DNA of 57,745 nucleotides, from NCBI GenBank assembly GCA_018650465.1, contig JABIFY010000147.1, positions 1 to 57,745 of the forward strand, read 5' to 3'. Shown in pieces: positions 33,042 through 57,739 of this stretch. The position numbers and the translations under genes were made by a program. The DNA comes from Alphaproteobacteria bacterium (GTDB lineage: Bacteria; Pseudomonadota; Alphaproteobacteria; UBA2966). Under the pieces are notes generated by a model that was not told the origin of the DNA, did no database searches, and worked only from the letters and a program-made list of their open reading frames with translations. Position 1 is the first letter of the stretch. Each line of letters opens with the position of its first letter.

Positions 33042-35465
33042 TTATGCAGGGTTGATAATGATGTTGCCAACATCATCAACTTCGCCCACATGGTCGGGCA
33101 AGATCAGCGTGGTTGAATCCATTTCGGTGACAACCGCCGGACCCTTGATGCGGTCCCCGGCTTTCAGCAAACTGCGGTCGTAAATCTTTGCCGCGTGGTT
33201 TTGTCCGTTTGCAAAAACGTTGGTATCTTCATAGACGGCCGCCGAACCATCGCCGCCGCCTTGCGGCAGTCTTTCGGCTGTGGCAGTGCTCTCGCCTCCC
33301 TGAACCATGGCGCGCAGGTTATATAATTCCCGCGGCGCATCCAGTTTAAAGGTAAAGAGCTGCTCATGTAGATCATCAAACTGGCGACCCAGTTCTTTCA
33401 GGCCCTGGGTGCGGAATTCTTCCGGCGTCATATCGACTGTCAGGCGCATACCTTGCCCGGCATAACGCAAGTCAATCTGATAAAGCGTTGTTTGTTCCTC
33501 ACGCGGCACGCCTTCATCATTGAGGGCTTCGGCGGCTTGGGCCGCCAACTCTTCCAGAACACCCAGAACTTCAGAATCCGATGTTTCGTCGAAGCGGCGT
33601 ACATAGGTGCGGGCGGCTTCGTTACGCACCCGCGTGGTGGCGTCGCCATAGGCGCACAAAACGCCCGGCCCCGGCGGAATAATTACCGGCCAGGAATTCA
33701 TTAGTTTACCCAGGGCATTGGCGTGAATGGGACCCGCGCCGCCAAAGCCAATCAAGGCAAAATCGCGTGGATCGAAACCCTGCTCAACCGAAACAAGGCG
33801 CAGGGCACCAAACATGTTTTCGTTGACGATATTAACGATGCCCTCTGCGGCTTCCAACATGGAAAGCCCCATGGCGTCGGCAACATTTTTCACGGCCTTT
33901 TCCGAGGCTGCCTTGTCCAGCTGCATGTCACCACCCAGCTTGGCGGTGGAAGGTAAATAGCCCAGCACCACATTGGCATCCGTCACGGTTGGTTCCGTAC
34001 CGCCATTGCCGTAAGCCGCGGGGCCTGGTTCGGCACCGGCACTTTGTGGACCAACGCGCAGGGCCTTGGTAAGTTCCGGCACATAAGCAATGGAGCCACC
34101 GCCAGCGCCAACGGTGCGCACATCAACGGACGAGGCCCGCACGGTGACATCCGCCACCCGCGTCTCGCGGCGTGTTTTGGCCACACCATCCTGGATCAGC
34201 GCCACATCTGTGGATGTCCCGCCCATATCAAAGGTCAGCAAGTCTTTATATCCGGCCTGTTTGGCCATCCAGATGGCACCGGACACGCCGCCCGCCGGAC
34301 CGGACATAAGCAGGTTCACCGGCAATTCCTTGGCCGCATCAGCAGAGGACAATCCACCGTCCGAGCGCAGGATGTGCAATTGCGTGCCGCCGGTTCGACG
34401 ATCCAGTTCCGACATCAGGTTTTCAATATATTTCCCCACCACCGGACGGATGTAGGAGTTCACGACCGTGGTTTCGGCCCGTTCATATTCATACATTTCC
34501 GGCACAATTTCCGAGGAAATCGAAATCGGCACGCCGGGCATGACTTCCTGGGCGATCTCACGAATGCGACGTTCGTGGGCCCCATTAGTATAGGAATTCA
34601 TCAGGGAGACGGTCAGGGCTTCAATACCATGCTTGGCCAGGTCCGCCAGATCAGTGCGCAGTTTTTGTTCGTTCAGGGGATCAACTGTTTCGCCCTTGGC
34701 GCTCATGCGCTCGTCAGCTTCGATGGTTAATTCCAGCGGGGCCAGCGGATCGGTTTTGTTGAAAATCACCCAGCCACCCAGACCACCCGGCACGTACGAT
34801 CGGGCAATTTGCAGGGTTTGTTTATAGCCTTTGGTCATGACCAGGCCGACTTTGGCACCTGAGCCTGTCAGCACCGTATTAGTGGCAACAGTTGTGCCAT
34901 GCATGACCTGGCCAATGGCTGTGGGTTCAATCCCGGCCAGGCCGCAAATCTTTTCAACGCCGTTCAATACACCCACGGATGAATCCTGCGGGGTCGACGG
35001 CACTTTGGCCGTGAAGGTCTGACCACTGGCTTCTTCAATCAGCAGCAAATCGGTAAATGTCCCGCCAACGTCAACGCCCAACAGGTAATCCCCACCCGCG
35101 GGCGTGCGCTTGCGCGGTGCGGGCCCGGAACTTGCCACGGGCTTTGCTGTTGCCTTGGCTGGTGGCGATGACTTGCGGGCTTCAGGTGCCGGCGCGGGCT
35201 CACGGCTTTGTGGCTGCGGCGTGTAGGCAGCGGGTGCGCTGCCGCCTTTGGAGGCAGGTGCCACAACCGGTGTCGGGGCGATCACGGGGGCGATAGAAGA
35301 TGGAGACGTTGAGGAGGTAGAAGAACTTGACGCGCCCGCTGATCTGGCTTGCGTACTTCCACTTGAACTCGACTTCTTGACGCCGCCCAGTTTGTCAAAT
35401 TCGCTTTTGTAGCCGTCCAGTTGGGAATCAAACCAGTCAGTCAGGTCTTTTTTGTCGCTCGTCAT
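33042..35465 (-). CDS. hyuA: Hydantoinase A/oxoprolinase family protein (HyuA), copy 1, with N-terminal tag and disordered linker
   Basis: Protein of 807 residues against about 690 for normal HyuA. Residues 1-28 form a charged helix-like segment (LTDWFDSQLDGYKSEFDKL). Residues 29-126 are a Ser/Pro/Ala-rich, probably disordered linker. The HyuA core starts at about 127 (YLLGVDVGGTFTDLLLIEE) and contains the ATP-site motifs VMHGTTVATNTVL, LLTFDMGGTSTDVALI and VGAGGGSIAYV. The start at 35465 is supported by GGTGG/AAAAAAG upstream. The tag resembles N-termini of the second HyuB and of a 69-residue protein in this window. First gene of the hyuA-hyuB pair, 84 bases after the isochorismatase-fold gene. 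Confidence 0.9.
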   Translation of the reverse strand: MTSDKKDLTDWFDSQLDGYKSEFDKLGGVKKSSSSGSTQARSAGASSSSTSSTSPSSIAPVIAPTPVVAPASKGGSAPAAYTPQPQSREPAPAPEARKSSPPAKATAKPVASSGPAPRKRTPAGGDYLLGVDVGGTFTDLLLIEEASGQTFTAKVPSTPQDSSVGVLNGVEKICGLAGIEPTAIGQVMHGTTVATNTVLTGSGAKVGLVMTKGYKQTLQIARSYVPGGLGGWVIFNKTDPLAPLELTIEADERMSAKGETVDPLNEQKLRTDLADLAKHGIEALTVSLMNSYTNGAHERRIREIAQEVMPGVPISISSEIVPEMYEYERAETTVVNSYIRPVVGKYIENLMSELDRRTGGTQLHILRSDGGLSSADAAKELPVNLLMSGPAGGVSGAIWMAKQAGYKDLLTFDMGGTSTDVALIQDGVAKTRRETRVADVTVRASSVDVRTVGAGGGSIAYVPELTKALRVGPQSAGAEPGPAAYGNGGTEPTVTDANVVLGYLPSTAKLGGDMQLDKAASEKAVKNVADAMGLSMLEAAEGIVNIVNENMFGALRLVSVEQGFDPRDFALIGFGGAGPIHANALGKLMNSWPVIIPPGPGVLCAYGDATTRVRNEAARTYVRRFDETSDSEVLGVLEELAAQAAEALNDEGVPREEQTTLYQIDLRYAGQGMRLTVDMTPEEFRTQGLKELGRQFDDLHEQLFTFKLDAPRELYNLRAMVQGGESTATAERLPQGGGDGSAAVYEDTNVFANGQNHAAKIYDRSLLKAGDRIKGPAVVTEMDSTTLILPDHVGEVDDVGNIIINPA

Positions 35466-35549
35466 ATCTTTTTTCCACCTTCGCAAGCGACCCGTTGATC
35501 GCTCTGTTTTTGGAATTTCAGAAAATATTTTTGCAATTTTGTAAATTTA

Positions 35550-36197
35550 TCAGGCGCTGTTACGTCCTCGCCACTCTTCAATCCACTTGATGACACTGTC
35601 CGTATCGGTAATATCTGCATATCGGCGCCCGACATCGCGTAAATTGTCATTGTGGGGTCGCTCGTCATGATCGCCGACGCCATCTTCCGGCACAATCGTG
35701 CGATAGCCAAACTGAAAACTGTCGATGACCGATGCCCGAATACAGCCCGATGTCACGCAGCCAACAAGAATAACCGTATCGACCTTCTGTCTGACCAGAA
35801 ATGGTACAATGGGTGTCTGAAAAAAGATCGACGCGCCGGTCTTGCAGAATTTCACATCATAGTCGGGATCATAAATCCGGGGATCCAGTTCAGTGCAGGG
35901 ATGACCATGAATCAAATCCTCACGCACTGCCGCCACTTTCCAGTAGGGCATGTCCTCCAGCGATTTATAGGCGGTGTAACAGGTTGCCACCGGCACTTCG
36001 CAACGCCGGGCCACCTCCAGCAAGCGGGCAGCATTATCCACGGCACGATCAATCAAGGGGGCACCACCCAGGGGATATTTTTCTTCCGTGAAGGCCGTCT
36101 GAAAATCCACGACAACAACAGCAGGGCGGTCACCGTAGCCGATAACTTCACTGCCATAGGTCCGCTCGTGATAGGTCGCTTCGGAAACGTCGCTCAT
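35550..36197 (-). CDS. Isochorismatase-fold amidohydrolase (N-carbamoylsarcosine amidase/maleamate amidase-like), copy 1
   Basis: Protein of 215 residues. The catalytic triad positions are visible: Asp in AVVVVDFQTAF, Lys in DVKFCKTGASIFFQT and Cys in VILVGCVTSGCIRAS. The family hydrolyses carbamoyl and amide bonds (N-carbamoylsarcosine, maleamate, biuret, nicotinamide). Immediately upstream of a HyuA/HyuB pair, removal of the carbamoyl group from a ring-opened hydantoin is a natural role. The start at 36197 follows AGGGGAAAAATC; a frame opening at 36221 has no such site. A GTATAC palindrome lies in the divergent promoter region. Confidence 0.88.
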   Translation of the reverse strand: MSDVSEATYHERTYGSEVIGYGDRPAVVVVDFQTAFTEEKYPLGGAPLIDRAVDNAARLLEVARRCEVPVATCYTAYKSLEDMPYWKVAAVREDLIHGHPCTELDPRIYDPDYDVKFCKTGASIFFQTPIVPFLVRQKVDTVILVGCVTSGCIRASVIDSFQFGYRTIVPEDGVGDHDERPHNDNLRDVGRRYADITDTDSVIKWIEEWRGRNSA

Positions 36198-36261
36198 GAT
36201 TTTTCCCCTGTCCACGCACATGCTTGCGCGCTTTGGCGCTGATTACGCCATTCGGCGCTAA

Positions 36262-36441: not shown

Positions 36442-37557
36442 GTGGACAGCAAGTCAATCGCGTTTCTGGAAGTCATGATTGCCCTCGGCGTCATTGGTAT
36501 TCTTGCCTTTTTGGTATACCTGATTTCCCGTTTTGCCATGCATAACAAGGCAAAATCCCTAGCTGGAAAGACAGTCAGTTATACCCCGCAATGGTACGAA
36601 TTCCTGCTGGCTGCGATCATTGTGATCATCGCCGCGATCCTGTTTTTGTGGCAATTCCCACCCGGTGGACGTGCGGATTGGGGCGAAGATTCACGATCGA
36701 TGACCTTCTTTGTCATTATGATGGTGATCTGCGCCATCGGCGTTATTGTATTCCTTTTGAGCATTTTCTGGCGTTTTTCACAGCGTCCTGGCGAGGTTGT
36801 TGAAGATTCAGCTATTATCGCCGCGGCAATGCGGGCCCCTGCCACAGCCGATGCTCCCGCCCAGGATGCTGCCCCGGCTGAACCGGTAAAAGCTCAGAAC
36901 GAATCCCCGTCAGCGGTGCGATTGCTGGGGCTTTTGGGCTTTATCGTCTCGTTTTTGATTTTGAACTGGGCCTGGGTGCCGCAAACTGACCAGTATTTTC
37001 TGATGCTGAACCTGATATATCCCGCCGGTCTGGTCGTGGCGCTGGTCATGCTGTTCGACAAGGCCAGCCGGGCCTGGAACGTCAAATTACCGGGCGAGAG
37101 CATCCGCGAGTGGTTTTATCTGGATGCAATATTGTTTCTTTATATATTGGGTTATCTGAACCTGAAGCAGGCCGGTGGTGGTGAAGCTTATGCCGCCATG
37201 TTCTGGGATGTGGTCAATGTCGTCGGATTTTTGTTCATCTTCTGGATGATCGACCGCAAAACCACAGGCCTGAGGTTTCTGGTCACCCATATTTATTTCC
37301 TGGCGCTGCCGATTCTGTTACTGATCTGGCGCACGGCGCAGGACATCAAAATCCCGGAAAATGTGGAAATATCCTGGTGGAGCACCATCTGGCCATTTTT
37401 TGCCCTCGCCGCTGTCTTCCTGGTGCTGGAATTCATCATCCTTATCGTCAATCGCGGAAATAACAATCAGACAGTGGGCACAGTCAAGGACGTCATATTC
37501 CTGATCCTCTATGTCATTCTTTTGCTAGCCGCCCGCCCGGAGGTAGCTGCAACATGA
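36442..37557 (+). CDS. Polytopic membrane protein of unknown family
   Basis: Protein of 371 residues that I do not recognise. About ten hydrophobic helices are arranged as an N-terminal group of three (about 8-30, 50-70, 85-110), a cytoplasm-type linker rich in Ala/Pro (about 125-155), and a C-terminal group of six to seven. There is no transporter signature. Translation probably starts at GTG (36442), preceded by TTGAGGAC. The last codons overlap the amidase start (ATGA), so the two proteins are made together; an uptake or membrane-anchoring role for the amidase is possible but unproven. Confidence 0.75.
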   Translation: MDSKSIAFLEVMIALGVIGILAFLVYLISRFAMHNKAKSLAGKTVSYTPQWYEFLLAAIIVIIAAILFLWQFPPGGRADWGEDSRSMTFFVIMMVICAIGVIVFLLSIFWRFSQRPGEVVEDSAIIAAAMRAPATADAPAQDAAPAEPVKAQNESPSAVRLLGLLGFIVSFLILNWAWVPQTDQYFLMLNLIYPAGLVVALVMLFDKASRAWNVKLPGESIREWFYLDAILFLYILGYLNLKQAGGGEAYAAMFWDVVNVVGFLFIFWMIDRKTTGLRFLVTHIYFLALPILLLIWRTAQDIKIPENVEISWWSTIWPFFALAAVFLVLEFIILIVNRGNNNQTVGTVKDVIFLILYVILLLAARPEVAAT

Positions 37558-38966
37558 CCGATCTGGCCCGTATGACGATCTCTGAACTGGGTGACTTGAT
37601 CCAGGAACGCAAAGTTTCGCCTGTCGAAGTTGTGCAAGCAACGCTTGATCGCGTTGATCGCCTGAACGGCGGCCTGAATGCCTTTATTTCCGTTTATCCG
37701 GATCTGGCCATGGAAGCCGCCCGCAAAGCGACAAGTGAAATCCAAAGTGGCAACTCTCGTGGGCCCCTGCATGGCGTGCCCTTGGGTATCAAGGACTTGT
37801 TTGAAGTCGAAGGCATGACCCGGACCTGCGGATCAAACATCATGCAGGAGCCACCGGCTGAAAAAGATGCGACATCGGTTGCCCGCCTGAAGGACGCCGG
37901 TGCCATCGTCATCGGCCTGTTGAACCTGAACGAATTTGCCTATGGCGCCACCGGTATCAACATTCACAAAGGTTCTGCCCGCAATCCCTGGGATCGGGAT
38001 TCTGCCTGTGGTGGTTCCAGTGCCGGGTCAGGTTGTGCGGTTGCTGCTCAGTTAGTGCCAGGTGCCATGGGCACCGACACAGGGGGGTCAGTCCGGCTTC
38101 CAGCCGCGATTTGCGGGGTTGTCGGCCTGAAACAAACATTTGGTTTGGCCAGTCGCCAAGGCATATATCCGCTTTGCAACAGTTTTGATCATCCCGGCCC
38201 GCTAACCCGGACAGTGCGGGATACGGCCTTGATGCTGCAAGCTTTTGCCGGTGAAGACCCACTGGACCCGACGACGCGCGTTGCCCGCACAGATGATTAT
38301 TCAAGGTACCTTGGCAAAACTGCCAAGGGCCTGAAAGTTGGTGTGCCCAAGGCGGTTTTCTTCGATGACCTGCACCCGGATGTGGAAAAGTCGGTTCGCG
38401 CCGCCATTCAAATATTCACAGACCTGGGTGCAGAAGTTCGCGAGATTGACCTGCCTTTTGCCCAGTCCGACATCGACAACTGGAATACCATGGCCCTGGC
38501 CGAGGCTTTTGTTGTGCATGAAGGCCACATGGCCACAAACGCACAAGACCTGGCACCTGAAGTCAGCAGCCGCCTTGAACTGGGCCGCAACATCAGCGCC
38601 CGCGATTATCTGAATGCCCGCGATCACCAAATGGAATTGCAGCACAAGTTTGCGGCCTTTATGGAAGACTTTGATGTGTTGGCCATGCCAACTGCCCCTA
38701 TTCCAGCCGTTTCAATTAAAACAGGCACGGTCGATGTTCAGGGGAGGCAAGTTGAAGGTGCACCCATCATGGGTCGACTGACCCGCATGGCCGTGTTTAC
38801 CGGACAACCGGCGATCAGCGTACCTTGTGGCTTTACCGAAACGGGCTTGCCTGTCGGTCTGCAACTTGTCGGGCACTGGTTTGGCGAGGCAGCCTTGCTC
38901 GGCGTGGCTGATGCCTATGAACAGGCAACACTCTGGCACACAATGCTGCCACCGGATATTGATTGA
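37554..38966 (+). CDS. Amidase signature family hydrolase
   Basis: Protein of 470 residues, full length for the family. The Ser-cisSer-Lys triad is visible: Lys in VPLGIKDLFEVEGM (about 79), Ser in CGGSSAGSGCAV and Ser in GTDTGGSVRLPAAICG, with the family signature complete. It hydrolyses amide bonds; relatives include GatA, mandelamide hydrolase and allophanate hydrolase. GatA is unlikely because GatB/GatC are absent and the setting is catabolic. It follows the 371-residue membrane protein with a four-base overlap. Confidence 0.88.
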   Translation: MTDLARMTISELGDLIQERKVSPVEVVQATLDRVDRLNGGLNAFISVYPDLAMEAARKATSEIQSGNSRGPLHGVPLGIKDLFEVEGMTRTCGSNIMQEPPAEKDATSVARLKDAGAIVIGLLNLNEFAYGATGINIHKGSARNPWDRDSACGGSSAGSGCAVAAQLVPGAMGTDTGGSVRLPAAICGVVGLKQTFGLASRQGIYPLCNSFDHPGPLTRTVRDTALMLQAFAGEDPLDPTTRVARTDDYSRYLGKTAKGLKVGVPKAVFFDDLHPDVEKSVRAAIQIFTDLGAEVREIDLPFAQSDIDNWNTMALAEAFVVHEGHMATNAQDLAPEVSSRLELGRNISARDYLNARDHQMELQHKFAAFMEDFDVLAMPTAPIPAVSIKTGTVDVQGRQVEGAPIMGRLTRMAVFTGQPAISVPCGFTETGLPVGLQLVGHWFGEAALLGVADAYEQATLWHTMLPPDID

Positions 38967-39576: not shown

Positions 39577-41028
39577 TTAACCACCATTACGTGACCCGGG
39601 TGCGCGTGAGGGGATATCGCCCGACTTGCTTGGTTTGTACATACCACCATAGGCACCGCGTTTGATAAAATTGCCGTCACCTTTGCGGCCCAGATACTGG
39701 CCCTTGTCGATAATCATGCGGCCGCGACTGAACACGGTTTCAGTGAAACCCTTGACCGGCATACCTTCGTAGGCGTTGTAGTCAACGTTCATATGGTGGG
39801 TGTGACTGTTCCAATAGCTGATGATCTCCTCACGCTCAGGGTCAAAGATCACGATATCGGCATCACTGCCGACAGCGATGGTACCCTTTTTCGGAAACAT
39901 GCCAAAAATCTTTGCCGGGCCTGTTGAGGTCAGTTCTACAAAGCGGTTGATATCGATGTAACCGCCATTGACGCCATAATGATAGATCAGGCTCATGCGG
40001 TTTTCGATGCCGGGCCCCCCATTGGGGATCTGGCTGAAATCATCTTTACCGATTTCCTTCTGTTCTTTTAGGCAAAACGGGCAATGATCGGTCGAGATGG
40101 CATTCAGGGCATTGCCACGCAGGCCGCGCCAAAGTTCTTCCTGGTTCCACTTTTCGCGCAAGGGCGGGGTCAGAACATATTTGGCGCCATCAAAACCCGG
40201 CTCGTCATATTTATCGACATCCAGCAGTAAATATTGTGGGCAGGTTTCGGCATGGGCCATGACGCCACGGGACTGGGCCATGCGCAATTCCTGCAAGCTG
40301 TCATAACTGCTGAGGTGGACAATATAGACCGGCGATTTAGCGACCTCGGCGATGGCAAGTGCCCGATGCACGCCTTCTGCTTCCAGACGTGTGGGCCGGG
40401 TAAGTGCATGGTATTTAGGCTCAATATGACCTTCTGCGAGGGCGATCTTGATCAATTCATCAATCACCACACCGTTTTCAGCGTGCATACAAATCAGGGT
40501 GCCGTCTTCACCGGCCTGGCGCATAGCCCGGAAGATGGTGCCATCATCCGACATCATGGCACCGGGATAGGCCATGAACATTTTGTAGCTGGAGACGCCT
40601 TCATCGGCCAGGGCCCGCATTTCCTTTGTACGAGCCTCCGGCATGTCGGTCAAAATCATGTGAAAGGCATAATCGATGGCGGTCTCGCCAGCGGCTTTGG
40701 CGTGCCATGTCTCCAGGGCTTCCAGCGAAGACTGGCCCTTCATCTGCACGGCAAAATCAATAATACAGGTCGTGCCACCAAAGGCTGCAGCGCGGGTGCC
40801 GGTCTCGAAGGTATCCGACGTGGTGGTGCCGCCAAAGGGCAGTTCCAGATGGGTGTGGGGATCGATGCCGCCGGGAATCACCAGCTTGCCTGCCGCATCC
40901 ACGACAACATCGGCATCAATCGCCAGATCGGTTCCGATGAGATCAATTGTCTCATCATTGATAAAGATATCAGCGTGGTAGTCATCCGTAGCCGTAACGA
41001 TGCGACCATTCTTGATTAATACACTCAC
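39577..41028 (-). CDS. hydA: Dihydropyrimidinase / D-hydantoinase
   Basis: Amidohydrolase of 483 residues, typical length. The metal site is shown by GGIDPHTHLELPFGGTTTSD, the carboxylated Lys by VSSYKMFMAYPG, and further His ligands by ICMHAENG and VYIVHLSSYD; the catalytic Asp lies in NAISTDHCPF. It opens six-membered dihydropyrimidines or five-membered hydantoins to N-carbamoyl amino acids. The GTG at 41028 is preceded by GGGGAGG; a frame reaching 41091 would run through the promoter. It is divergent from the PotABCD-like binding-protein gene, with a GTATAC palindrome between them. Confidence 0.92.
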   Translation of the reverse strand: MSVLIKNGRIVTATDDYHADIFINDETIDLIGTDLAIDADVVVDAAGKLVIPGGIDPHTHLELPFGGTTTSDTFETGTRAAAFGGTTCIIDFAVQMKGQSSLEALETWHAKAAGETAIDYAFHMILTDMPEARTKEMRALADEGVSSYKMFMAYPGAMMSDDGTIFRAMRQAGEDGTLICMHAENGVVIDELIKIALAEGHIEPKYHALTRPTRLEAEGVHRALAIAEVAKSPVYIVHLSSYDSLQELRMAQSRGVMAHAETCPQYLLLDVDKYDEPGFDGAKYVLTPPLREKWNQEELWRGLRGNALNAISTDHCPFCLKEQKEIGKDDFSQIPNGGPGIENRMSLIYHYGVNGGYIDINRFVELTSTGPAKIFGMFPKKGTIAVGSDADIVIFDPEREEIISYWNSHTHHMNVDYNAYEGMPVKGFTETVFSRGRMIIDKGQYLGRKGDGNFIKRGAYGGMYKPSKSGDIPSRAPGSRNGG

Positions 41029-41058
41029 AAAACGCCTCCCCTGATCAATCTGGTTTGC

Positions 41059-41071
41059 TATAATTGTATAC
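41059..41071. promoter_or_regulatory. GTATAC palindrome site 4, overlapping a TATAAT
   Basis: TATAATTGTATAC: TATAAT at 41059-41064 and GTATAC at 41066-41071, between the divergent dihydropyrimidinase (start 41028) and ABC binding-protein (start 41209) genes. It is within 45 bases of the dihydropyrimidinase start. Confidence 0.55.
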
Positions 41072-43614: not shown

Positions 43615-43615
43615 T

Positions 43616-49089: not shown

Positions 49090-51351
49090 TCATGATACAC
49101 CTGATCGTCCTTCGCCGAAATCAAACAATTCCAGCGATTTTCGACTGAGTTTTGTGGCTTCGCGCAAGTCTGTTGTAGCCCGTAAATCCAGCTCATAATG
49201 TCGACCAGTGAGGATGACACCATAGGCGACACGGGCCTTCTCCTGGGTCATCAATTTGCGGGCGACGTCGTTTCTGACACGTCTGGGATCACGTTCAAGC
49301 GGATCGCCCCAACCACCACCACCGGCAGTTATGAAGACAATACGATCTCCGGCCTCGACGCGCACATTATCAATCTTTGACGGCAAGGGTTCAGGTTCCG
49401 CAGTGCCGCGAATAATCCATTTTTCTGAACAGGCCCCAGGCTGGCCACCCAGAATACCCCAAGGCTGTGATTCCTGGCGATCGTCGTGGATGGAGACGTC
49501 ACCGGGTTCCAGCAAGCGATAGACTTTTTCGATACCGTTGCCGCCGCGATGTTTACCGGCCCCGCCCGTGTCCGCCACACTTCCGTAGCGTTCAATCACC
49601 ATGGGGAAAAAGTTTTCCAGATATTCGGTCGGGATATTTTCAAACAGTGGCCACCAGGAATGACCATCCATGCCATCGCCCACGGGCCGCCCCGGAATAC
49701 CGCCATAAAGAATTTCCATCAGCTGGAACGGTCGTTTGTGACTGTCCACGCCGGAAAACAGGAAATGCGGGCTGGAGCCATAACCGGCGGCCGTTGCCAT
49801 CTCTGGTGCATGTTTGCTCAGCGCCCCACCCATGACATCAAACTGACGCGACAGGGCGTGGGTGCGGCAACCAAGTGGTGCCGGGAATTCAGGATTAACC
49901 AGCGAACCCTTTGGCAGGTTCACATGGATCAAATCGTAAAAGCCGTCATTGAACAAAATTTGTGGATCAAAAACCATGATCATGTAAACGCCGATGAACA
50001 TCTTGAACATGCCATCATGCAGATAGAAATTGATCGGGCCTGGTGCCTGTGCCGATGTACCGGTCCAGTCGAAATAGGCGTGATCGCCTTCCCGCCAGAC
50101 CGTTAGTTTCATCTTGAACGGTCCGTTACCCAGACCATCGTCATCCACATAATCTTCAAAAGACTGCGGCTCTATCGGCAGGTTTTGCACGATCAATTTG
50201 CGCATGGCCCGGTTGGTACGCTCCAGCAAGGCTTCGCAAGCCTGGGTATAGGTACCGGTGCCAAAGCGTTCACAGATTTCCACCACCCGACGTTCCCCGG
50301 CGCGACACCCGGCCACAATGGCCATCAGGTCGCTGTAGTTCATTTCCGGCGTGCGGGTATTGTTCATCAAGATATCAAGGGCGGCTTTATTCAACACACC
50401 TTCGGCATAAATCTTGACCGGCGGAATACGCATGCCTTCGCCAAAGATCGAGGTCGCCGCCGTCGGCATGCTGCCGGGTACGGGGCCACCCACGTCCATC
50501 ATATGACCAAACATGGAAGAAAAGCCGACAAGGTCGCGTCCGACGAAAATCGGGATCAGCACCATCCAGTCATTGATGTGGCTGATGGCGCCGCCGCATT
50601 TATAAGGATCGCTTTGCAGAATAACGTCGCCCGGCTTGAGGTCGAAATCCTGCTGTTTGAGCATTTCAGATATATAAGAGCCGAACTGGCCCACAATCAT
50701 GCGGCCTTCGGCGTCCGTGATCATGGGAAATTCGTCATGCTGTTCACGAATGACCGGCGACATGGCCGAACGGAACAATATGGCATCCATTTCATGCCGG
50801 GCATTGCGCAGGGCATTTTCAATCAAGTCCAGCGTGACAATGTCGATAGGCCCAACGACGGCGTCAGATTTGGCACCTGTTCGGGCAGCAGGTGCCAACG
50901 GTGCCTGGTCGCCCTGTCCTGAATCAACAGGTGCGCGCCCGGTAAACTGATCGGCGCAGCGCAAAGCGGCTTCTTCGGCAGCCTTTTCAAAGGCGAGCGC
51001 TGAATTCCCTTCCAGGGTAGCCGAACCCTGATCCGCTTTGGATTTCCCCGCGACATCAATTTTGATGCGCACAATGGCCTTGCCGTTTTCAGCTTTGGTC
51101 TCAAGAATGTCATAAGACCAATCAAAGTCGAAGCGGCGATTCAGGGCGATAATCGCATTGGTGCCCAGCTTCAATGCCCTTGGCACAAGGTCAACCGGCC
51201 CGGCTGTCGCGTTGCTTGCGGGCCGCGCACTGGGACTGAGCAAACTGGCATCATCCATCTGGCGACTGAACAACTGGTCAAACTGGTTCTTGTTGGCCGA
51301 CAGCAGATCGTCCAGGGAAATGGGGGTGCGCGTACGGGTATCGTCAGACAT
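49090..51351 (-). CDS. hyuB: Hydantoinase B/oxoprolinase family protein (HyuB), copy 2, with N-terminal tag and extra module
   Basis: Protein of 753 residues against about 520-600 normally. Residues 10-32 form a helix-like tag (ISLDDLLSANKNQFDQLFSR), 33-54 a linker, about 55-137 an extra compact domain, 138-166 a Pro/Ala linker; the HyuB core starts at about 167 (GPIDIVTLDLIENALRNARH) with NDP-like DPYKCGGAISHINDW and C-terminal FITAGGGGWGDPLERDP. It partners the HyuA encoded just upstream (TGATG overlap). Substrate unknown: hydantoin, N-methylhydantoin, oxoproline and carboxylase-type reactions are all used in this superfamily. The additions are not part of the known fold. Confidence 0.9.
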   Translation of the reverse strand: MSDDTRTRTPISLDDLLSANKNQFDQLFSRQMDDASLLSPSARPASNATAGPVDLVPRALKLGTNAIIALNRRFDFDWSYDILETKAENGKAIVRIKIDVAGKSKADQGSATLEGNSALAFEKAAEEAALRCADQFTGRAPVDSGQGDQAPLAPAARTGAKSDAVVGPIDIVTLDLIENALRNARHEMDAILFRSAMSPVIREQHDEFPMITDAEGRMIVGQFGSYISEMLKQQDFDLKPGDVILQSDPYKCGGAISHINDWMVLIPIFVGRDLVGFSSMFGHMMDVGGPVPGSMPTAATSIFGEGMRIPPVKIYAEGVLNKAALDILMNNTRTPEMNYSDLMAIVAGCRAGERRVVEICERFGTGTYTQACEALLERTNRAMRKLIVQNLPIEPQSFEDYVDDDGLGNGPFKMKLTVWREGDHAYFDWTGTSAQAPGPINFYLHDGMFKMFIGVYMIMVFDPQILFNDGFYDLIHVNLPKGSLVNPEFPAPLGCRTHALSRQFDVMGGALSKHAPEMATAAGYGSSPHFLFSGVDSHKRPFQLMEILYGGIPGRPVGDGMDGHSWWPLFENIPTEYLENFFPMVIERYGSVADTGGAGKHRGGNGIEKVYRLLEPGDVSIHDDRQESQPWGILGGQPGACSEKWIIRGTAEPEPLPSKIDNVRVEAGDRIVFITAGGGGWGDPLERDPRRVRNDVARKLMTQEKARVAYGVILTGRHYELDLRATTDLREATKLSRKSLELFDFGEGRSGVS

Positions 51352-53450
51352 CAGTGCCGCCCTCCCGCAGATTGCTTCACATTCGATTGTCCAACCAGGG
51401 CCTGGCCTTCCGGGTGGATCAGGATATTCAGATAATCATCCACATCGCCCACATGGCCGGGGTGGATGACACAGGTCGAATCTTTTTGCACCACAATGGC
51501 TGGTCCCGGAATGTGGTTACCGGCTTGCAGCTTGTTACGATCATAAACCCCGGCGCTAACAAAGCTGCCATTAAAATAGACCTGATCCTGACGGAGCAAG
51601 GCGGCGGATGCATCGGGACCGGATTTTTCGAATTTCGGGAAGGCGACCTTGTCGACTTCGCCGGTGCCGATGGCCCGCAAGTTCACAATTTCTACCGGCT
51701 GCTCCAGCTTGAAGCCATATTGGCGTTCATGGGCGACGCCAAAGCTGGCGACCAGTGAGGCCAGACCGTTATTACGCAAATGCTCAGGATCAACATCCAT
51801 GGTGAATTCATAGCCCTGGCGGAAATAACGCACATCCGCCTGATAGCGCACGTCACGCGCCCGTTCGCTCAAGCCTTCTTCTTTCAGCCATGCCTGGGCT
51901 TCTGCGCCCAGGGTCGTCAAAATATCAACCACTTGATCCACTTCAATATCATCCACTGTGCGCGCAAACGTGCGGGCAAATTCGTTTTTGATATCGGAAT
52001 ATAAAAAGCCCAGGGCCGACAAAACACCCGGTGTGGGTGGAACAATCACCGGGAAACAGCCTGCCAGAATGGCCATGGCGTTGCCATGCAAAGGCCCCGC
52101 CCCACCAAAAGCCACGAGGGCAAAATTGCGCGGATCAAGACCTTTTTGCACTGAGACAAGTCGCAAGGCACCAAACATATTTTCGTTGACGATATTCAGA
52201 ATGCCTTCAGCCGTCTGATGCAGATCCAGACCCAGGTCCTGACCCAGTTTGCCAACCGCATCTTTCGCGGCTTGCACATTCAATGACATGTCGCCGCCCA
52301 GCAAACTCGGCGGCAAGCGGCCCAGCACAACATTGGCATCCGTTACCGTTGGTAATTCGCCACCATGCCCATAACAGGCAGGCCCAGGTCGGGCACCGGC
52401 GCTATCCGGCCCCACACGTAAAGCGCCCGTCATGGGCACATGGGCGATAGAACCGCCGCCTGCACCCACGGAATGCACTTCAACAGATGGCACCTTAACA
52501 GGGTAATAGCCCAGCTGGGTCTGGCGCGACTGGGTTGGCGCACCGTCCTGGATCAGGGAAACATCGGTGGACGTCCCGCCCATATCAAAGCCCAGGGCAT
52601 TCGGGTAGCCTGCCAATGTGGCAAGGTAAGCCGCGCCTGAAACACCGCCAGCGGGACCAGACAACATGGTATGCACAGGCGATTCTGACGCCTTGGCCAC
52701 ACTCATCAAGCCACCATCGGAGCGCACAATATTAACCTTGGGGCTAAACTGGATACTGCGTAATTTTTCTTCAAAGCCTTTAAGATAGCGCCCCATACTG
52801 GGTCGCACATAGGCGTTCATGACCGTGACCAAAGTCCGTTCATATTCGCGGAATTCCGGCAGTAATTCCGATGACAAAGAGACCGGAATATCGCCGCCCA
52901 TATCCTGGATCATTGCTTTCAAGCGCTGCTCATGGGTCGGATCGGCATAGGAATGCATCAGGGAAATGGTAATTGATTCAACCCCGGCATCCAGCAATTC
53001 ACGAATGCTTTCGCGGGCCAGGGTTTCTTCCATGGGCGTAATGACGTCGCCGCGGGCCGAAATACGTTCAACAATGCCGCGGGTGAATTCCAGATCAGCC
53101 AAAGGATCGGGCTTTATCATGATCATCCAGCCCGCCAGGGGGCCAGGGGTCTGGGACCGGGCCAGGTGCAAAACCTGTTCAAAGCCTTCGCTCACCAGCA
53201 GGCCGACTTTGGCGCCTTTTTCTTCCAGCACAATATTTGTCGAAACGGTGGTGCCGTGCAGCAGGGCAGTAATGGCGGAAGGCGATACACCGGTCTCGCG
53301 CATCAGCTCTTCAATACCATTATGAATGCCAACCGATTGGTCAGCCGGAGTCGAGGGTGTTTTCAACAGATGCATGGCACCTGTTTCACCGTCGAACAGC
53401 AGGAGATCCGTAAAAGTTCCCCCGACATCAATGCCAAGACGACTTGACAT
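51351..53450 (-). CDS. hyuA: Hydantoinase A/oxoprolinase family protein (HyuA), copy 2
   Basis: Protein of 699 residues, the normal length, starting directly at the ATPase core: LGIDVGGTFTDLLLFDGE, then LLHGTTVSTNIVLEEKGAKV, LGFDMGGTSTDVSLIQDG and VGAGGGSIAHV. It provides the ATP-using half of the HyuAB enzyme. The ATG at 53450 follows GGGAGG; the frame continues upstream to 53507 without a site. Unlike HyuA copy 1 it has no tag; in this pair the tag is on HyuB. First gene of the operon hyuA-hyuB-flotillin-potA. Confidence 0.92.
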   Translation of the reverse strand: MSSRLGIDVGGTFTDLLLFDGETGAMHLLKTPSTPADQSVGIHNGIEELMRETGVSPSAITALLHGTTVSTNIVLEEKGAKVGLLVSEGFEQVLHLARSQTPGPLAGWMIMIKPDPLADLEFTRGIVERISARGDVITPMEETLARESIRELLDAGVESITISLMHSYADPTHEQRLKAMIQDMGGDIPVSLSSELLPEFREYERTLVTVMNAYVRPSMGRYLKGFEEKLRSIQFSPKVNIVRSDGGLMSVAKASESPVHTMLSGPAGGVSGAAYLATLAGYPNALGFDMGGTSTDVSLIQDGAPTQSRQTQLGYYPVKVPSVEVHSVGAGGGSIAHVPMTGALRVGPDSAGARPGPACYGHGGELPTVTDANVVLGRLPPSLLGGDMSLNVQAAKDAVGKLGQDLGLDLHQTAEGILNIVNENMFGALRLVSVQKGLDPRNFALVAFGGAGPLHGNAMAILAGCFPVIVPPTPGVLSALGFLYSDIKNEFARTFARTVDDIEVDQVVDILTTLGAEAQAWLKEEGLSERARDVRYQADVRYFRQGYEFTMDVDPEHLRNNGLASLVASFGVAHERQYGFKLEQPVEIVNLRAIGTGEVDKVAFPKFEKSGPDASAALLRQDQVYFNGSFVSAGVYDRNKLQAGNHIPGPAIVVQKDSTCVIHPGHVGDVDDYLNILIHPEGQALVGQSNVKQSAGGRH

Positions 53451-53506
53451 TGCACCTCCCTTTTTCGCAGCCTTCGAACCTTTTGAGCCGAATACCCCTG
53501 ACCTCA

Positions 53507-53520
53507 AAATGTATACAACA
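53507..53520. promoter_or_regulatory. GTATAC palindrome site 5 upstream of hyuA copy 2
   Basis: AAATGTATACAACA (GTTGTATACAT on the minus strand), core 53511-53516, about 60 bases upstream of the hyuA start at 53450. It lies in the 305-base gap 53451-53755, which otherwise holds only the plus-strand promoter-like sequence and the palindrome listed next. Confidence 0.5.
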
Positions 53521-53755: not shown

Positions 53756-54280
53756 ATGTCGAATGAAATTGCAGATCGCCGTCGGCCCCGCTTCTGGATT
53801 GGCCTGCTTGCTTTTATTATTTTGCTGATATTCCTGTATTTTTATACACCGTTCGAGACCCTGGTGAAGGGCAGCATTCCCAAGATTCACTTTAGTAATG
53901 TGATATTCTGGTTTGCCTCGGTGGTAGGCATCATTGCCTACGCCGTGTCGCATTGGCAGTCGTTCCGCAATAATTTGTCCAAACATGTAACGTCGCTGGA
54001 TGTGCCGGTTCTGGTGTTTGATACGCTTCAGGTATCAATTCTGATCGCCGTGATCTTTTGTGCCGGAGCCACATTGCAGGCCGTCGCCATGCTGTCGGAA
54101 CATCTTATGAGCGCTGCCCCGATCATTGGATCGGGCCTGGGTGAAAATCTGCTGGCGATTGTGCTGCTGGTCGTGATGGCAGTGCTGTTTTATTTGCTGC
54201 ACCACGTGGTTCGCGCCTTCCGTGACGGCTGGCAAACCCGCAGGCCACCTCGCTTTACCACGTCATCCTCTGACGGCTGA
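53756..54280 (+). CDS. Small four-helix membrane protein, paralogue of the protein at 39034-39513
   Basis: Protein of 174 residues, function unknown. A basic N-terminus (ADRRRPRFW) leads into four hydrophobic helices. It shares LIFLYFYTPFETL, FSNVIFWFASVVGII, HWQSFR, ATLQAVAMLSEHL and LFYLLHHVVRAF-type segments with the protein at 39034, across the full length, so the two are paralogues. Both stand beside hydantoinase genes and both have their own promoter region. It is convergent with the CobW gene, only two bases between stops. Confidence 0.75.
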   Translation: MSNEIADRRRPRFWIGLLAFIILLIFLYFYTPFETLVKGSIPKIHFSNVIFWFASVVGIIAYAVSHWQSFRNNLSKHVTSLDVPVLVFDTLQVSILIAVIFCAGATLQAVAMLSEHLMSAAPIIGSGLGENLLAIVLLVVMAVLFYLLHHVVRAFRDGWQTRRPPRFTTSSSDG

Positions 54281-54282
54281 CT

Positions 54283-55664: not shown

Positions 55665-56684
55665 CTAGCGCGGATTCCGGGCGGCAAAGTCATCCGCAAT
55701 TTCATCAAATGTGCAAAAGCGCACCCCGGTATGGGCGCTGATATGATCAAAAACCCGCTGCAACATCATCTGCACCTGGGGCCGGCCCGAAACATCCGGG
55801 TGGATGGTCAGGGTGAAAACGGCATAATCATATTCGTTATATACCCAGTCGAACTGGTCGATCCACAACTGTTCAATATCGCGCGGATTGACAAAACCAT
55901 GACTGTTGGGCGCGCCCTTGATGAACATCATCGGCGGCAGATCATCCAGATACCAGCTGCCAGGAATATCGATCAGGTCGGTTTCGTGACCACGCACCAG
56001 CGGCTTCATCCATTCGTCGGGATGTTTGGAATAATCGATCTTGGTCCAGCTGTCGCCGACGCGGGCATAAAAGGGATGAAAATCATCATTCATCAAGCTG
56101 TGGTCGTACTTGATGCCCTTGGCCAACAACAATTCGTTGGTAATGGGTGAAAACTCCCACCAGGGTGCCACATAGCCCGTGGGCCGACGACCGGAGACCT
56201 TTTCGATCAGGTCGATACATTTGTCCATGACAGCTTCTTCTTGCACGGGTGTCATGGCGATGGGGTTTTCGTGGCTATAGCCGTGCATACCGATTTCGTG
56301 ACCGGCATCGACCACCATTTGCGTTTCCGCCGGAAAGGTTTCGATGGAATGGCCAGGAATAAACCAGGTCGTGGGGATTTGCCATTTATCGAACAGGCGA
56401 ACCATACGCGGCACCCCGACTTCACCGGCGAACAGGCCACGGGAGATATCGCAAGGCGAATCTTCACCCCCATAAGACCCAAGCCAACCGGCCACGGCGT
56501 CAACATCCACACCCACGGCACAAAGGATTTCTTTTTTCCCGCCGTTGGCCACTGAACGATGAGAGATGGAGCTGGAGCTGGAACCTGCGCTGGAAGAAAA
56601 AGTCGGGCGCGGCTGATATCGCCCACCTGAGACACTGCCGGTTACACCCTGTGTTGGTCGACCAGACCCTGAATTATTGTTCAT
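55665..56684 (-). CDS. Polysaccharide deacetylase family protein (allantoinase PuuE/peptidoglycan deacetylase-like) with Ser/Gly-rich N-terminus
   Basis: Protein of 339 residues. Residues 1-50 are a Ser/Gly/Asn-rich, probably disordered leader containing [10 protein letters not shown]. The NodB-type catalytic domain starts at about 51 ([16 protein letters not shown]), has the metal motif MHGYSHENP, the substrate-side [11 protein letters not shown] and a final [13 protein letters not shown] His. There is no signal peptide, so it is cytoplasmic. Cytoplasmic members hydrolyse cyclic ureides or similar C-N bonds. The ATG at 56684 is chosen because GGGGAG lies ten bases upstream; a TTG at 56705 is possible. 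Operon with the MCGLCG protein and CobW. Confidence 0.85.
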
Positions 56685-56758
56685 TCCCCGAATGCTCCCC
56701 GTCAATCAATTGCGATTTTTTTTAATCTTGAATCTGTTCTTAGGCGATCAGATGAGTT

Positions 56759-56799: not shown

Positions 56800-57525
56800 T
56801 TGAGCGACTGGAAAGACGAAACGCTGCAAAGCTACCAGAGCAAAGGATTTGCATCCCGCGCCGGATTTGGCAAGCGACCTGCCTTGTTAATCGTTGATTT
56901 TATCAATGGCTTTACGGACCCCTCTTCGCCCCTGGGTGGTGATTTTTCAAGCCAGTTAGGCGTCACCAGCCAATTGCTGGAAGTTTTTCGCCGCGAACGC
57001 CTGCCCATTGCCTATACCACCATCGAATATGATGCCGACTTCCGCGACGCTGGTGTCTTCATCAAAAAGGTGCCGTCCCTGTCCGTGCTTTTGCGTGGCT
57101 CGCCCATGTGCAAGATCGACGACCGCATCCGTCCGGAAACCGGTGAATATGTCGTCTCCAAGAAATACGCCAGCAGCTTCTTTGGCACGAACCTGGATAC
57201 CTGGATCAGAAACAACGATGCCGACACAGTGGTCATTGTTGGTTGTACCACAAGCGGTTGCGTGCGCGCCTCAGCCGTCGATTCCCTGCAACACGGGTTT
57301 TACACAATCGTTGTGGCTGAGGGCTGTGGCGACAGGGCGGACGGTCCGCACGAAGCCAATTTGTTTGACATGGATGCCAAATATGCCGACGTGGTTTCAA
57401 CCGCTGAAGCCCTGGATTATGTCAACGGACTGAGCCGCAAGCCAGAGTCCCGGTCTGCCCGTGTCGCCGGCCGGAATTTCAAGCGCTGGTGGGCCGATGG
57501 CGACGGCGCCGAAAAAGAGGGATAA
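56800..57525 (+). CDS. Isochorismatase-fold amidohydrolase (N-carbamoylsarcosine amidase-like), copy 2
   Basis: Protein of 241 residues. Catalytic Asp in ALLIVDFINGFTD, Lys in VVSKKYASSFFGT and Cys in VIVGCTTSGCVRAS are all present. It resembles N-carbamoylsarcosine amidase and maleamate amidase. The last 30 residues are a basic, Ser/Arg-rich tail (SRKPESRSARVAGRNFKRW) not needed for the fold. Translation starts at TTG (56800), with GGGAG seven bases upstream. It is a paralogue of the enzyme at 35550. The 69-residue tag-like protein follows after four bases. Confidence 0.88.
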   Translation: MSDWKDETLQSYQSKGFASRAGFGKRPALLIVDFINGFTDPSSPLGGDFSSQLGVTSQLLEVFRRERLPIAYTTIEYDADFRDAGVFIKKVPSLSVLLRGSPMCKIDDRIRPETGEYVVSKKYASSFFGTNLDTWIRNNDADTVVIVGCTTSGCVRASAVDSLQHGFYTIVVAEGCGDRADGPHEANLFDMDAKYADVVSTAEALDYVNGLSRKPESRSARVAGRNFKRWWADGDGAEKEG

Positions 57526-57529
57526 ACAA

Positions 57530-57739
57530 ATGTCGGGAAAATATTCATCACCATTCGACGACCTGCTGGCCAGCAATCAAAAACAAATGGATGACGTGCT
57601 GGGTGGACCAGGCCGATCTTATGCTCCACGCCCCGCTGCACCGACCTCTGTCACAGCCAGCCCGCCCCCATCTGACAACACCGGCGGTAACACAATTTCA
57701 GGCACGGCGAACGGCATTCCATTCAGTCTCAAAGTCTGA
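57530..57739 (+). CDS. 69-residue tag-like protein: helix motif plus Pro/Ser-rich tail
   Basis: Complete small protein with start and stop in the window. Residues 7-26 (SPFDDLLASNQKQMDDVLGG) look like an amphipathic helix; the remainder is Pro/Ala/Ser/Thr-rich (RSYAPRPAAP) and ends ISGTANGIPFSLKV. The helix resembles the N-terminal tag of HyuB copy 2 (LDDLLSANKNQFDQLF) and less closely that of HyuA copy 1. I do not recognise a family. It may be a free-standing targeting or adaptor peptide or the first gene of more tagged proteins beyond the window edge. It lies four bases after the isochorismatase-fold gene, so translation is probably coupled. Confidence 0.6.
   Translation: MSGKYSSPFDDLLASNQKQMDDVLGGPGRSYAPRPAAPTSVTASPPPSDNTGGNTISGTANGIPFSLKV

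What the first reader, a model, noticed from the sequence alone, without database searches (positions are those of the whole stretch)
33042..57739. Shared N-terminal helix tag plus disordered linker on cyclic-amide enzymes
HyuB copy 2 (LDDLLSANKNQFDQLF), the 69-residue protein (FDDLLASNQKQMDDVL) and, more weakly, HyuA copy 1 (FDSQLDGYKSEFDKL) begin with a similar short helix-like segment, each followed by a Pro/Ser/Ala-rich linker that the families normally lack. The layout is that of an encapsulation, docking or condensate-targeting peptide. One member of each HyuA/HyuB pair carries it, and one copy exists alone as a small protein. This suggests co-localisation of a hydantoin/ureide pathway. 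No microcompartment or encapsulin shell gene is visible in the window.
Basis: partly seen in the sequence, partly recalled or inferred. Interest (0 to 1): 0.85.

Follow-up and report, generated by a model that had tools for sequence, protein, structure and literature searches.

The report
Conserved docking tag in flotillin-linked enzymes
Two proteins of a cyclic-amide pathway in bacteria known from environmental genomes start with the same strongly conserved short helix on a flexible leash, found next to a giant membrane scaffold protein, which suggests that bacteria may gather these enzymes at the membrane without a known protein shell.

Summary
The 17-residue N-terminal helix of HyuB copy 2 (SLDDLLxANKxQFDxxF) recurs in 32 further genomes (Alphaproteobacteria, Gammaproteobacteria, SAR324), almost as conserved as the catalytic core, while the linkers behind it are not. 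The 69-residue protein is a true relative: scanning those 33 genomes found the tag in one further family, a small protein in 18 of 33, beside the isochorismatase-type gene ich2 in 17 of these. Its long form is tag + linker + a RAD52/dsRBD-like domain that HyuB2 also carries. HyuA copy 1 has its own conserved N-terminal motif (17 of 17 readable orthologues); kinship with the tag is not proven. The genome shows no BMC or encapsulin shell gene. What travels with the tag is the neighbouring 937-residue flotillin-like protein: beside tagged hyuB in 29 of 29 readable clusters, in 0 of 54 untagged loci, although the trees show one origin, not many. Best reading: a docking peptide of a membrane-bound enzyme assembly whose scaffold is probably that flotillin. 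Docking itself is inferred; no complex could be modelled.

The parts
49090..51351 (-). hyuB copy 2: hydantoinase B / N-methylhydantoinase-type subunit with N-terminal tag module
   Evidence: PF02538 at residues 170-684, E 3.6e-149
51247..51324 (-). Docking tag of HyuB2 (26 aligned residues PISLDDLLSANKNQFDQLFSRQMDDA; core residues 12-28), predicted helix 13-36
   Evidence: 27-row alignment A1, S, L, F, D invariant; helix in AlphaFold2 model, block pLDDT only 67-68 over residues 11-30; conservation 0.77
51172..51237 (-). First flexible linker of HyuB2 (about residues 39-60)
   Evidence: pLDDT below 50 at residues 39-52; low conservation
50941..51171 (-). RAD52/dsRBD-like alpha-beta-beta-beta-alpha domain of HyuB2 (about residues 61-137); absent in L017 and L019-L024
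   Evidence: AlphaFold2 block pLDDT 79-92 over residues 61-140; Foldseek best 8rjw_G human RAD52, E 7.6e-5; absence seen
50848..50940 (-). Second linker of HyuB2 (residues 138-168)
   Evidence: conservation 0.33; pLDDT below 50 at 141-168
57530..57739 (+). 69-residue tagged small protein, short form of a family found beside ich2
57545..57622 (+). Tag of the small protein (SSPFDDLLASNQKQMDDVLGGPGRSY)
   Evidence: alignment A5; A1 vs A5 E 5.1e-9; E 6.1e-11 with model A6, which includes it
57698..57736 (+). C-terminal motif SGTANGIPFSLKV of the small protein, resembling the loop (such as GSAGGVAFSF) inside the RAD52-like domain of 9 of 11 long forms
   Evidence: seen by eye in the family members listed
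33042..35486 (-). hyuA copy 1 with N-terminal motif and long Pro/Ala/Ser-rich linker
   Evidence: first Pfam domain (PF05378) starts at residue 136
35367..35450 (-). Conserved N-terminal motif of HyuA1 (KDLTDWFDSQLDGYKSEFDKLGGVKKSS)
   Evidence: 17-row alignment A4; orthologues
46201..49014 (-). Flotillin-like SPFH protein, 937 aa: N-terminal hydrophobic segment, Band_7 domain 36-181, long coiled coil with 29-residue repeat, C-terminal helical domain
   Evidence: PF01145 E 4.6e-14; repeat lag 29; adjacency to tagged hyuB in 29 of 29 readable clusters
46213..46512 (-). C-terminal helical domain of the flotillin (residues 835-934); candidate tag receptor (inferred only)
   Evidence: block pLDDT 60-85, the best-modelled part of an otherwise poor model
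51351..53507 (-). hyuA copy 2, partner of tagged HyuB2; shares one base with hyuB2
   Evidence: coordinates; domains
55665..56705 (-). Polysaccharide-deacetylase-family hydrolase (distant PuuE match) with conserved N-terminal YxP motif (RYQPRP, 56604-56621) and Gly/Ser-rich linker
   Evidence: PF01522 E 4.6e-16; TIGR03212 E 2.8e-21, below cut-off; motif
56800..57525 (+). ich2: isochorismatase-type amidohydrolase, upstream neighbour of the small tagged protein
   Evidence: biuret amidohydrolase/RutB-type matches, below cut-offs; adjacency
35550..36221 (-). ich1: isochorismatase-type hydrolase
   Evidence: weak hydrolase match, below cut-off
31114..33015 (-). hyuB copy 1 (no N-terminal tag)
   Evidence: CapB-type match from residue 18, below cut-off
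39577..41091 (-). Dihydropyrimidinase / D-hydantoinase
   Evidence: TIGR02033 above cut-off
37554..38966 (+). Amidase (AtzE/GatA-like)
   Evidence: matches below cut-offs
41074..44443 (+). Spermidine/putrescine-type ABC importer: binding protein and two permeases
   Evidence: gene order; weak PotD-like match, far below cut-off; names partly from sequence reading
45088..46188 (-). ABC transporter ATPase (potA-like), directly downstream of the flotillin gene
   Evidence: name from sequence reading
53756..54280 (+). tm174: small hydrophobic, presumably membrane, protein conserved beside hyuA2
   Evidence: membrane nature read by eye

Best explanation
The N-terminal helix of HyuB2 and of the small protein is a docking peptide. 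It works like an encapsulation peptide, as a helix on a flexible leash, and brings the HyuA2/HyuB2 enzyme and a small adaptor to a common assembly at the inner membrane. The scaffold is most likely the giant flotillin-like SPFH protein encoded next to hyuB2. Its N-terminus presumably sits in the membrane, its long coiled coil would form the wall of a dome or ring, and its C-terminal helical domain is the best candidate receptor. The cluster's ABC importer would feed substrate to hydantoinase/N-methylhydantoinase-type enzymes held there. HyuA1 and the deacetylase-family hydrolase carry their own conserved N-terminal motifs and linkers, and may be clients through other sites.

Shown here: conservation of the tag, its presence on two protein families, the predicted helix-linker-domain layout, gene neighbourhood with the flotillin, and no known shell found in the own genome. 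Inferred: that the tag binds anything, that the receptor is the flotillin, and the order of the pathway.
For: In 33 distinct genomes chosen because they carry the tagged HyuB or its cluster, a genome-wide scan finds the HyuB2 tag in all 33 (partly by construction) and one other tagged family, in 18 of 33, beside ich2 in 17 of those 18; 6 of the 18 were in the model, 12 were not. Tag conservation 0.77 against 0.33-0.47 for flanks and linkers. In L017 and L019-L024 the RAD52-like domain is gone and the linker replaced, yet the tag stays. Helix 13-36 followed by a disordered stretch in the model.

Flotillin adjoins tagged hyuB in 29 of 29 clusters with readable downstream DNA: the window, 23 loci, L125, L127, L128, L179 and L180. 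It is in none of 54 untagged loci, 47 of which have at least 1.5 kb downstream. In a sample of 398 genomes of the phylum a flotillin match at E <= 1e-60 was found in 1, the own one; two first-look candidates per genome were scored in the rows listed.

In family f67, HyuA2/HyuB2 keep only 112-133 of 208 and 144-148 of 239 near-invariant core columns, on a very long branch placed inside the tagged clade, while tag, RAD52-like domain and flotillin (56% identity) persist. Selection there seems to hold the tag rather than the enzyme.
Against: No physical interaction was tested: no complex prediction is offered, and the flotillin model is poor (mean pLDDT 58; no match at E <= 0.001). On the trees all tagged rows form one clade, so tag and flotillin co-occur by one shared origin plus conservation, not by repeated independent gain; the program flags the f67 rows as long-branched and of unusual composition, so their place is unsure. 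HyuA1's motif is not significantly similar to the tag. 15 of 33 genomes show no small tagged protein at E <= 1. The tag helix is modelled with middling confidence (block pLDDT 67-68). Hydrophobic moments are only modestly above shuffles (fractions 0.035-0.114). BMC genes occur in 7 of 33 genomes, including 3 of 4 of f67.
Confidence: 0.55

Rival explanations
1. Homotypic condensate tag: the helices bundle with each other, as reported for PduP-type encapsulation peptides, and concentrate HyuB2 and the small protein without a dedicated receptor; the flotillin is only a neighbour in the same pathway.
For: Same layout as peptides reported to drive condensation through trimeric helix bundles (passages of PMC12339742). 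A stand-alone tagged small protein suits a nucleator. The HyuA1 linker is long and Pro/Ala-rich.
Against: Does not explain the flotillin directly beside tagged hyuB in 29 of 29 readable clusters and in 0 of 54 untagged loci, except as inheritance of one cluster.
Confidence: 0.2
2. Subunit-assembly element: the helix packs on HyuA2, on the RAD52-like domain or on another subunit, and is part of the enzyme's quaternary structure rather than a targeting signal.
For: HyuA/HyuB-type enzymes work as multi-subunit complexes (recalled). The tag has near-core conservation.
Against: The tag is separated from the enzyme by linkers of changing length and content. It occurs on a small protein without an enzyme. 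It stays when the RAD52-like domain is lost. Untagged HyuB of 59-68% identity do without it.
Confidence: 0.15
3. Encapsulation peptide for a bacterial microcompartment or encapsulin encoded elsewhere.
For: The layout matches the definition of such peptides. 7 of 33 cluster-bearing genomes do hold BMC shell genes; in G776 a BMC locus with a distant HyuB (33% identity) lies about 30 kb from the tagged gene.
Against: 26 of 33 have no PF00936 match, the own genome included. PF03319 and PF04454 are also absent from the own genome. Scanned stretches around BMC genes of 4 of the 7 genomes show no tag above noise (best 3.0 bits).
Confidence: 0.03
4. Chance resemblance of short helical N-termini.
For: The HyuA1 motif against the HyuB2 tag would fit this (E 0.0066).
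Against: Invariant residues over 27 rows from three major groups, A1 vs A5 E 5.1e-9 and 0 of 5000 shuffles, 12 small proteins found that were not in the model.
Confidence: 0.02

Closest known systems
Encapsulation peptides of bacterial microcompartments (PduP, PduD, EutC, CcmN)
   Different: No BMC shell gene found in 26 of 33 cluster-bearing genomes, the own one included; one small family carries the tag without any enzyme; the neighbour is an SPFH protein.
Flotillin / SPFH cages (FLOT1/FLOT2; HflK/C enclosing AAA+ proteases)
   Same: SPFH domain plus long coiled coil; known relatives form membrane-attached cages, and HflK/C cages can hold an enzyme inside (passages and section 11 of PMC11260169).
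   Different: About 937 residues with 29-residue coil repeats and a C-terminal helical domain of its own; no PDB chain matched by the sequence profile. Recruitment of soluble enzymes by a short tag was not seen in the listings.
N-methylhydantoinase / caprolactamase HyuB-CapB family
   Same: Catalytic core matches 7hk5 (172-731, E 2e-70) and 6yra (168-726, E 2.7e-61).
   Different: The N-terminal module of about 168 residues (tag, linker, RAD52-like domain, linker) is not covered by any of the 5 solved relatives.
RAD52 / dsRBD fold
   Same: alpha-beta-beta-beta-alpha domain; best Foldseek matches are human RAD52 and dsRBDs.
   Different: Fused to a metabolic enzyme; query-normalised TM-scores low (0.25-0.30 for the 11 best), other small folds (Rv1738/HPF type) follow; no evidence of nucleic-acid binding.

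Membership tests
BMC encapsulation peptide | Short (15-20 aa) terminal amphipathic helix on a poorly conserved disordered linker | tested here: met
   helix 13-36, disordered 39-52, linker conservation 0.33-0.47; amphipathicity only modest
BMC encapsulation peptide | BMC shell (PF00936, PF03319) present to be targeted to | tested here: not met
   0 in own genome; PF00936 absent in 26 and present in 7 of 33 cluster-bearing genomes
Encapsulin cargo peptide | Encapsulin shell gene (PF04454) in the genome | tested here: not met
   0 in own genome, control rings in 3 of 14; not tested in the other genomes
Flotillin / SPFH family (46201-49014) | Band_7/SPFH domain, N-terminal membrane segment, coiled coil | tested here: met
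   PF01145 E 4.6e-14; coil repeat 29; helix 2-28, hydrophobic by eye
Flotillin / SPFH family (46201-49014) | Assembles into a membrane-attached cage or ring | not testable with these tools
   single-chain model only, pLDDT 58
FloT (NCBIfam NF058507) | Score over the curated cut-off 700 | tested here: not met
   26 bits: an SPFH relative, not a FloT
HyuB / hydantoinase B | PF02538 domain full length over cut-off | tested here: met
   498 bits, profile 1-519 of 519
RAD52 family | RAD52-like fold | tested here: inconclusive
   Foldseek E 7.6e-5, probability 1.00, but low TM-scores; a dsRBD fits nearly as well (E 3.0e-4)
RAD52 family | Sequence match to a known family model | tested here: not met
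   no Pfam match for residues 61-137
Small tagged protein belongs with the HyuB2 N-terminal module | Homologous tag, and RAD52-like domain in long forms | tested here: met
   A1 vs A5 E 5.1e-9; domain model hits L014, L016, L018 at 37.8-39.8 bits; further long forms in L184-L188, L193-L195
HyuA1 motif is the same tag | Significant profile similarity to the HyuB2 tag | tested here: inconclusive
   to HyuB2 E 0.0066 and 368 of 5000 shuffles; to the small protein E 1.9e-4 and 4 of 5000

The most novel reading that the evidence does not exclude
A new kind of bacterial enzyme compartment: a membrane-seated cage built from one giant flotillin, loaded with soluble hydantoin/cyclic-amide enzymes by a short docking tag, with a small tagged adaptor and an importer feeding it, independent of BMC and encapsulin shells and shared by Alphaproteobacteria, Gammaproteobacteria and SAR324.
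Probability: 0.35. Interest if true: 0.95.

Novelty: new variant of a known kind. Interest (0 to 1): 0.8.

Why it matters
Bacterial flotillins are held to organise proteins at membranes, but how soluble clients would be chosen is, to my knowledge, largely open. Here a conserved 17-residue tag, a small tagged protein and a candidate scaffold are encoded together, so recruitment can be tested with a fusion and a pull-down. If it holds, SPFH proteins join BMC shells and encapsulins as cargo-loading compartments, and the tag becomes a tool for placing enzymes at membranes. Family f67, where the enzyme looks decayed but tag and scaffold persist, gives a natural experiment.

Tried and rejected
BMC and encapsulin targeting: rejected for the own genome. 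The 7 of 33 genomes with BMC genes were followed in 4 of them: no tag above noise in those stretches. An independent regain of the tag by a foreign HyuB in family f67 was suspected from 33-42% identity. The trees place those rows inside the tagged clade, so this idea was dropped, with the program's warning on long branches noted. A fold search on the flotillin gave nothing usable. HyuA1 as carrier of the very same tag: not established. Literature: 'flotillin + hydantoinase' (0 papers), 'bacterial microcompartment + hydantoinase + isochorismatase' (0), 'bacterial microcompartment + encapsulation peptide + hydantoin' (1 paper, on protein scaffolds); the listings showed no title or abstract start describing such a system. 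Only open-licence PMC papers were searched; of papers I saw passages of three and one section of one.

Choice of rows. The 33 genomes were not drawn blindly: 26 come from the HyuB2 scan because their locus is tagged, 4 (f67) from the tag search, G390 and G391 from the HyuA search, and the own genome. One search left out L129-L132 (truncated, or the same genomes as other loci). A2 left out L016 and the loci without the RAD52-like domain. A3 left out the flotillins of L012 (truncated) and L016, L018 (unread bases). The trees used 22 randomly kept untagged rows each, and the HyuB tree is the quick version. In one search the near-invariant columns were defined without the f67 rows but with the control rows, which flatters the controls. 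HyuA1: 19 of 29 genomes gave a hit; L151 is HyuA2-like, L142, L146, L148 have no readable N-terminus, and the 15 others show the motif, one (L147) with L for W. One search gave 27 of 385 genomes with a match at E <= 0.1: 9 at E <= 1.8e-5, all HyuB, and 18 weaker ones (E 0.014-0.097) not followed. In one search, 18 distinct weak matches (E 0.0018-0.95) remain besides HyuB2 and the small protein; one was read (L196, internal to another protein), 17 were not, among them the best, G768:C14 at E 0.0018 with a stop inside. G393 and G763 give identical matches and are counted as one genome, so 34 handles are 33 genomes. G194, G001, G187, G281 are taken as the genomes of L001, L002, L005, L008 from equal contig lengths.


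Full report
WHAT WAS CLAIMED. The sequences are at the stated places. The window is contig C29 of a 4.8-Mb genome, 98.9% complete; the contig ends at 57745.

THE TAG ON HYUB2. A scan of the genome-contig collection returned the best 80 of 285 HyuB2 relatives. 26 of these 80 carry the tag. With the window they give the consensus xxSLDDLLxANKAQFDxxFxxQM, with S, L, F and D invariant. All 26 records are titled as metagenome-assembled genomes. Over 30 tagged rows, including three of family f67, the tag keeps 0.77 of the commonest residue per column, its flanks and linkers 0.33-0.47, the RAD52-like domain 0.51, the C-terminal tail 0.59 and the catalytic core 0.83. In L017 and L019-L024 the region between tag and enzyme is a wholly different Pro/Ala/Gly-rich stretch, and the tag remains. 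hyuB2 shares one base with hyuA2, so the conservation is not borrowed from an overlapping gene. A search of 385 genomes of the class found strong tag matches (E <= 1.8e-5) in 9, all on HyuB, and 18 weaker ones that I did not follow.

WHAT LIES BETWEEN TAG AND ENZYME. An AlphaFold2 model of residues 1-172 (mean pLDDT 68) shows a helix at 13-36 with middling confidence, a disordered stretch, and an alpha-beta-beta-beta-alpha domain with block pLDDT 79-92, followed by a second disordered stretch. Foldseek ranks human RAD52 first (8rjw_G, E 7.6e-5), with dsRNA-binding domains close behind. TM-scores are low, so the fold class is likely but no function follows. None of the 5 solved relatives of HyuB2 covers this module.

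THE SMALL PROTEIN. A tag model built from HyuB2 rows only, run over 23,173 reading frames of the loci, ranked three members of the small-protein family directly behind the true HyuB2 tags: L014 at 14.0, L002 at 6.5 and the window at 5.9 bits; noise begins at 5.5, and the fourth member, L001 at 5.0, lies within it. Profile comparison gives E 5.1e-9 and 0 of 5000 shuffles. A mixed model (A6) was then searched through 34 handles, which are 33 distinct genomes chosen for carrying the tagged HyuB or its cluster. The tag is on HyuB2 in 33 of 33, which is largely by choice of genomes, and on the small protein in 18 of 33, 12 of which were not in the model. Some of these 18 scored only E 0.1-0.2 (G759, G764, G393) and were accepted for their neighbour gene and, in G764 and G393, their RAD52-like domain. 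Eighteen other weak matches remain (E 0.0018-0.95); one was read and is internal to another protein, 17 were not followed. The small protein lies beside ich2 in 17 of 18 genomes; in G769 it lies beside the deacetylase-family gene. Eleven long forms are tag + linker + RAD52-like domain. Seven short forms (window, L001, L002, L189-L192; the frame of L191 runs on) keep the tag, a linker and a C-terminal motif resembling a loop (such as GSAGGVAFSF) present in 9 of the 11 long forms, not in L016 and L018 (by eye). A two-motif adaptor is the natural reading; that is inference.

HYUA1. The search gave hits in 19 of 29 genomes; 18 are HyuA1-type and 15 have a readable N-terminus. These 15, L118 and the window show a motif close to [ST]xWFxxQLxxLKxxxxxL (W and F in at least 90% of rows) and then a variable Pro/Ala-rich linker. 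Its similarity to the HyuB2 tag is not significant (E 0.0066; 368 of 5000 shuffles), and to the small-protein tag it is suggestive (E 1.9e-4; 4 of 5000). I treat it as a second, conserved N-terminal motif. The deacetylase-family enzyme has a further conserved motif (YxP within GxRYQPRPL) and linker; my strict pattern matched 5 of 8 rows, the other three reading IYQPKPL or TYQPQSL.

THE SCAFFOLD CANDIDATE. Immediately downstream of hyuB2 lies a 937-residue SPFH protein (PF01145, E 4.6e-14). It adjoins the tagged hyuB in 29 of 29 clusters with readable downstream DNA: window, 23 loci, L125, L127, L128, L179, L180. L006, L046, L076 and G357 end too early to tell. None of 54 untagged loci has it; 47 of them reach at least 1.5 kb downstream. 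The own genome has one other, shorter SPFH match (34% identity). Its coil repeats every 29 residues, with further lags at 11, 18, 40 and 58, as I would expect for a right-handed coil. Its length is exactly 937 in 12 of 24 rows, 852 in two and 963 in two; others are 935-939, and two rows are cut off. Lengths thus differ by roughly whole repeats. The structure model is poor (mean pLDDT 58) except for a C-terminal helical domain at 835-934 (block pLDDT 60-85), and the fold search found nothing at E <= 0.001. A profile search of the PDB found no relative. Human flotillins form membrane-attached, closed-walled cages, and HflK/C cages hold AAA+ proteases (passages and section 11 of PMC11260169).

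INDEPENDENCE OF THE EVIDENCE. On the trees all tagged HyuA2 and HyuB2 form one clade (100/100 in the careful HyuA tree; 99 in the quick HyuB tree). Tag and flotillin were therefore probably gained once and then kept together; 29 against 0 is not 29 independent events. The f67 family adds weight. Its HyuA2 and HyuB2 lie inside that clade on branches of 2.46 and 2.53 changes per site (the program flags them as long-branched and of unusual composition). They keep only 112-133 of 208 (HyuA2) and 144-148 of 239 (HyuB2) near-invariant core columns. They still have the tag, the RAD52-like domain and the adjacent flotillin at 56% identity. A well-conserved HyuA1/HyuB1 pair is present in the cluster of G279 (71% and 84% identity). 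The tag seems to have outlived its enzyme's conservation.

WHAT IT IS NOT. No BMC (PF00936, PF03319) or encapsulin (PF04454) gene was found in the own genome. Seven of 33 cluster-bearing genomes hold BMC genes, three of them among the four of f67. Stretches around them in 4 genomes show no tag above noise. In G776 one such locus holds a distant HyuB and lies about 30 kb from the tagged gene, while G771, whose HyuA2/HyuB2 are nearly the same, has the cluster and no BMC match.

HOW IT MOST LIKELY WORKS. The importer brings in a cyclic amide or ureide. Dihydropyrimidinase, HyuA/HyuB, amidases and the deacetylase-family hydrolase open and split it. HyuB2 and the small protein dock by their helix to an assembly at the membrane, most likely the flotillin. 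Shown: the anatomy, conservation and neighbourhood. Inferred: binding, receptor and substrate. Confidence that the helix is a docking or assembly peptide of some kind: about 0.85; that the flotillin is its scaffold: about 0.5.

NOVELTY. The layout is that of known encapsulation peptides (passages of PMC12339742 and PMC8217296). A tag paired with an SPFH protein was not seen in the listings of the paper searches (limited to open-licence PMC). Filed as a new variant of a known kind; a categorically new compartment is possible but unproven.

Noticed in passing
L125, L127, L128 (family f67): HyuA2/HyuB2 appear decayed (DVGGTFTD to DIG[KA]TFTD, EQHDEFP lost, about 40% of near-invariant columns changed) while the cluster, tag and flotillin persist: possible pseudo-enzymes with a structural role.
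   Followed up: partly
L016:21356-22255 (-): The C-terminal part of a HyuB carries a RAD52-like domain at its C-terminus (26.6 bits, E 5.6e-6), so this domain is attached to HyuB in more than one way.
   Followed up: no
window 55665-56705 (-): Deacetylase-family enzyme has a conserved N-terminal YxP motif (GxRYQPRPL) before a Gly/Ser-rich linker; possibly a third kind of docking motif.
   Followed up: partly
window 35103-35381 (-), HyuA1 linker: The HyuA1 linker holds an IAP-type repeat (SIAPVIAPTPVVAPA) that recurs in several relatives as PPTIAPPPTIAPTPTIAPP.
   Followed up: no
L201:14194-15900 and G776:C1:335656-336966: A bacterial microcompartment shell locus with a distant HyuB (33% identity) and no tag, about 30 kb from the tagged cluster of the same genome.
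   Followed up: partly
window 39034-39513 (+) and 53756-54280 (+): Two small hydrophobic proteins without Pfam assignment over cut-off, both conserved in the cluster and alike by eye; possible membrane partners.
   Followed up: no
window 46201-49014 (-): Flotillin lengths 852, 937 and 963 differ by roughly whole 29-residue coil repeats.
   Followed up: partly
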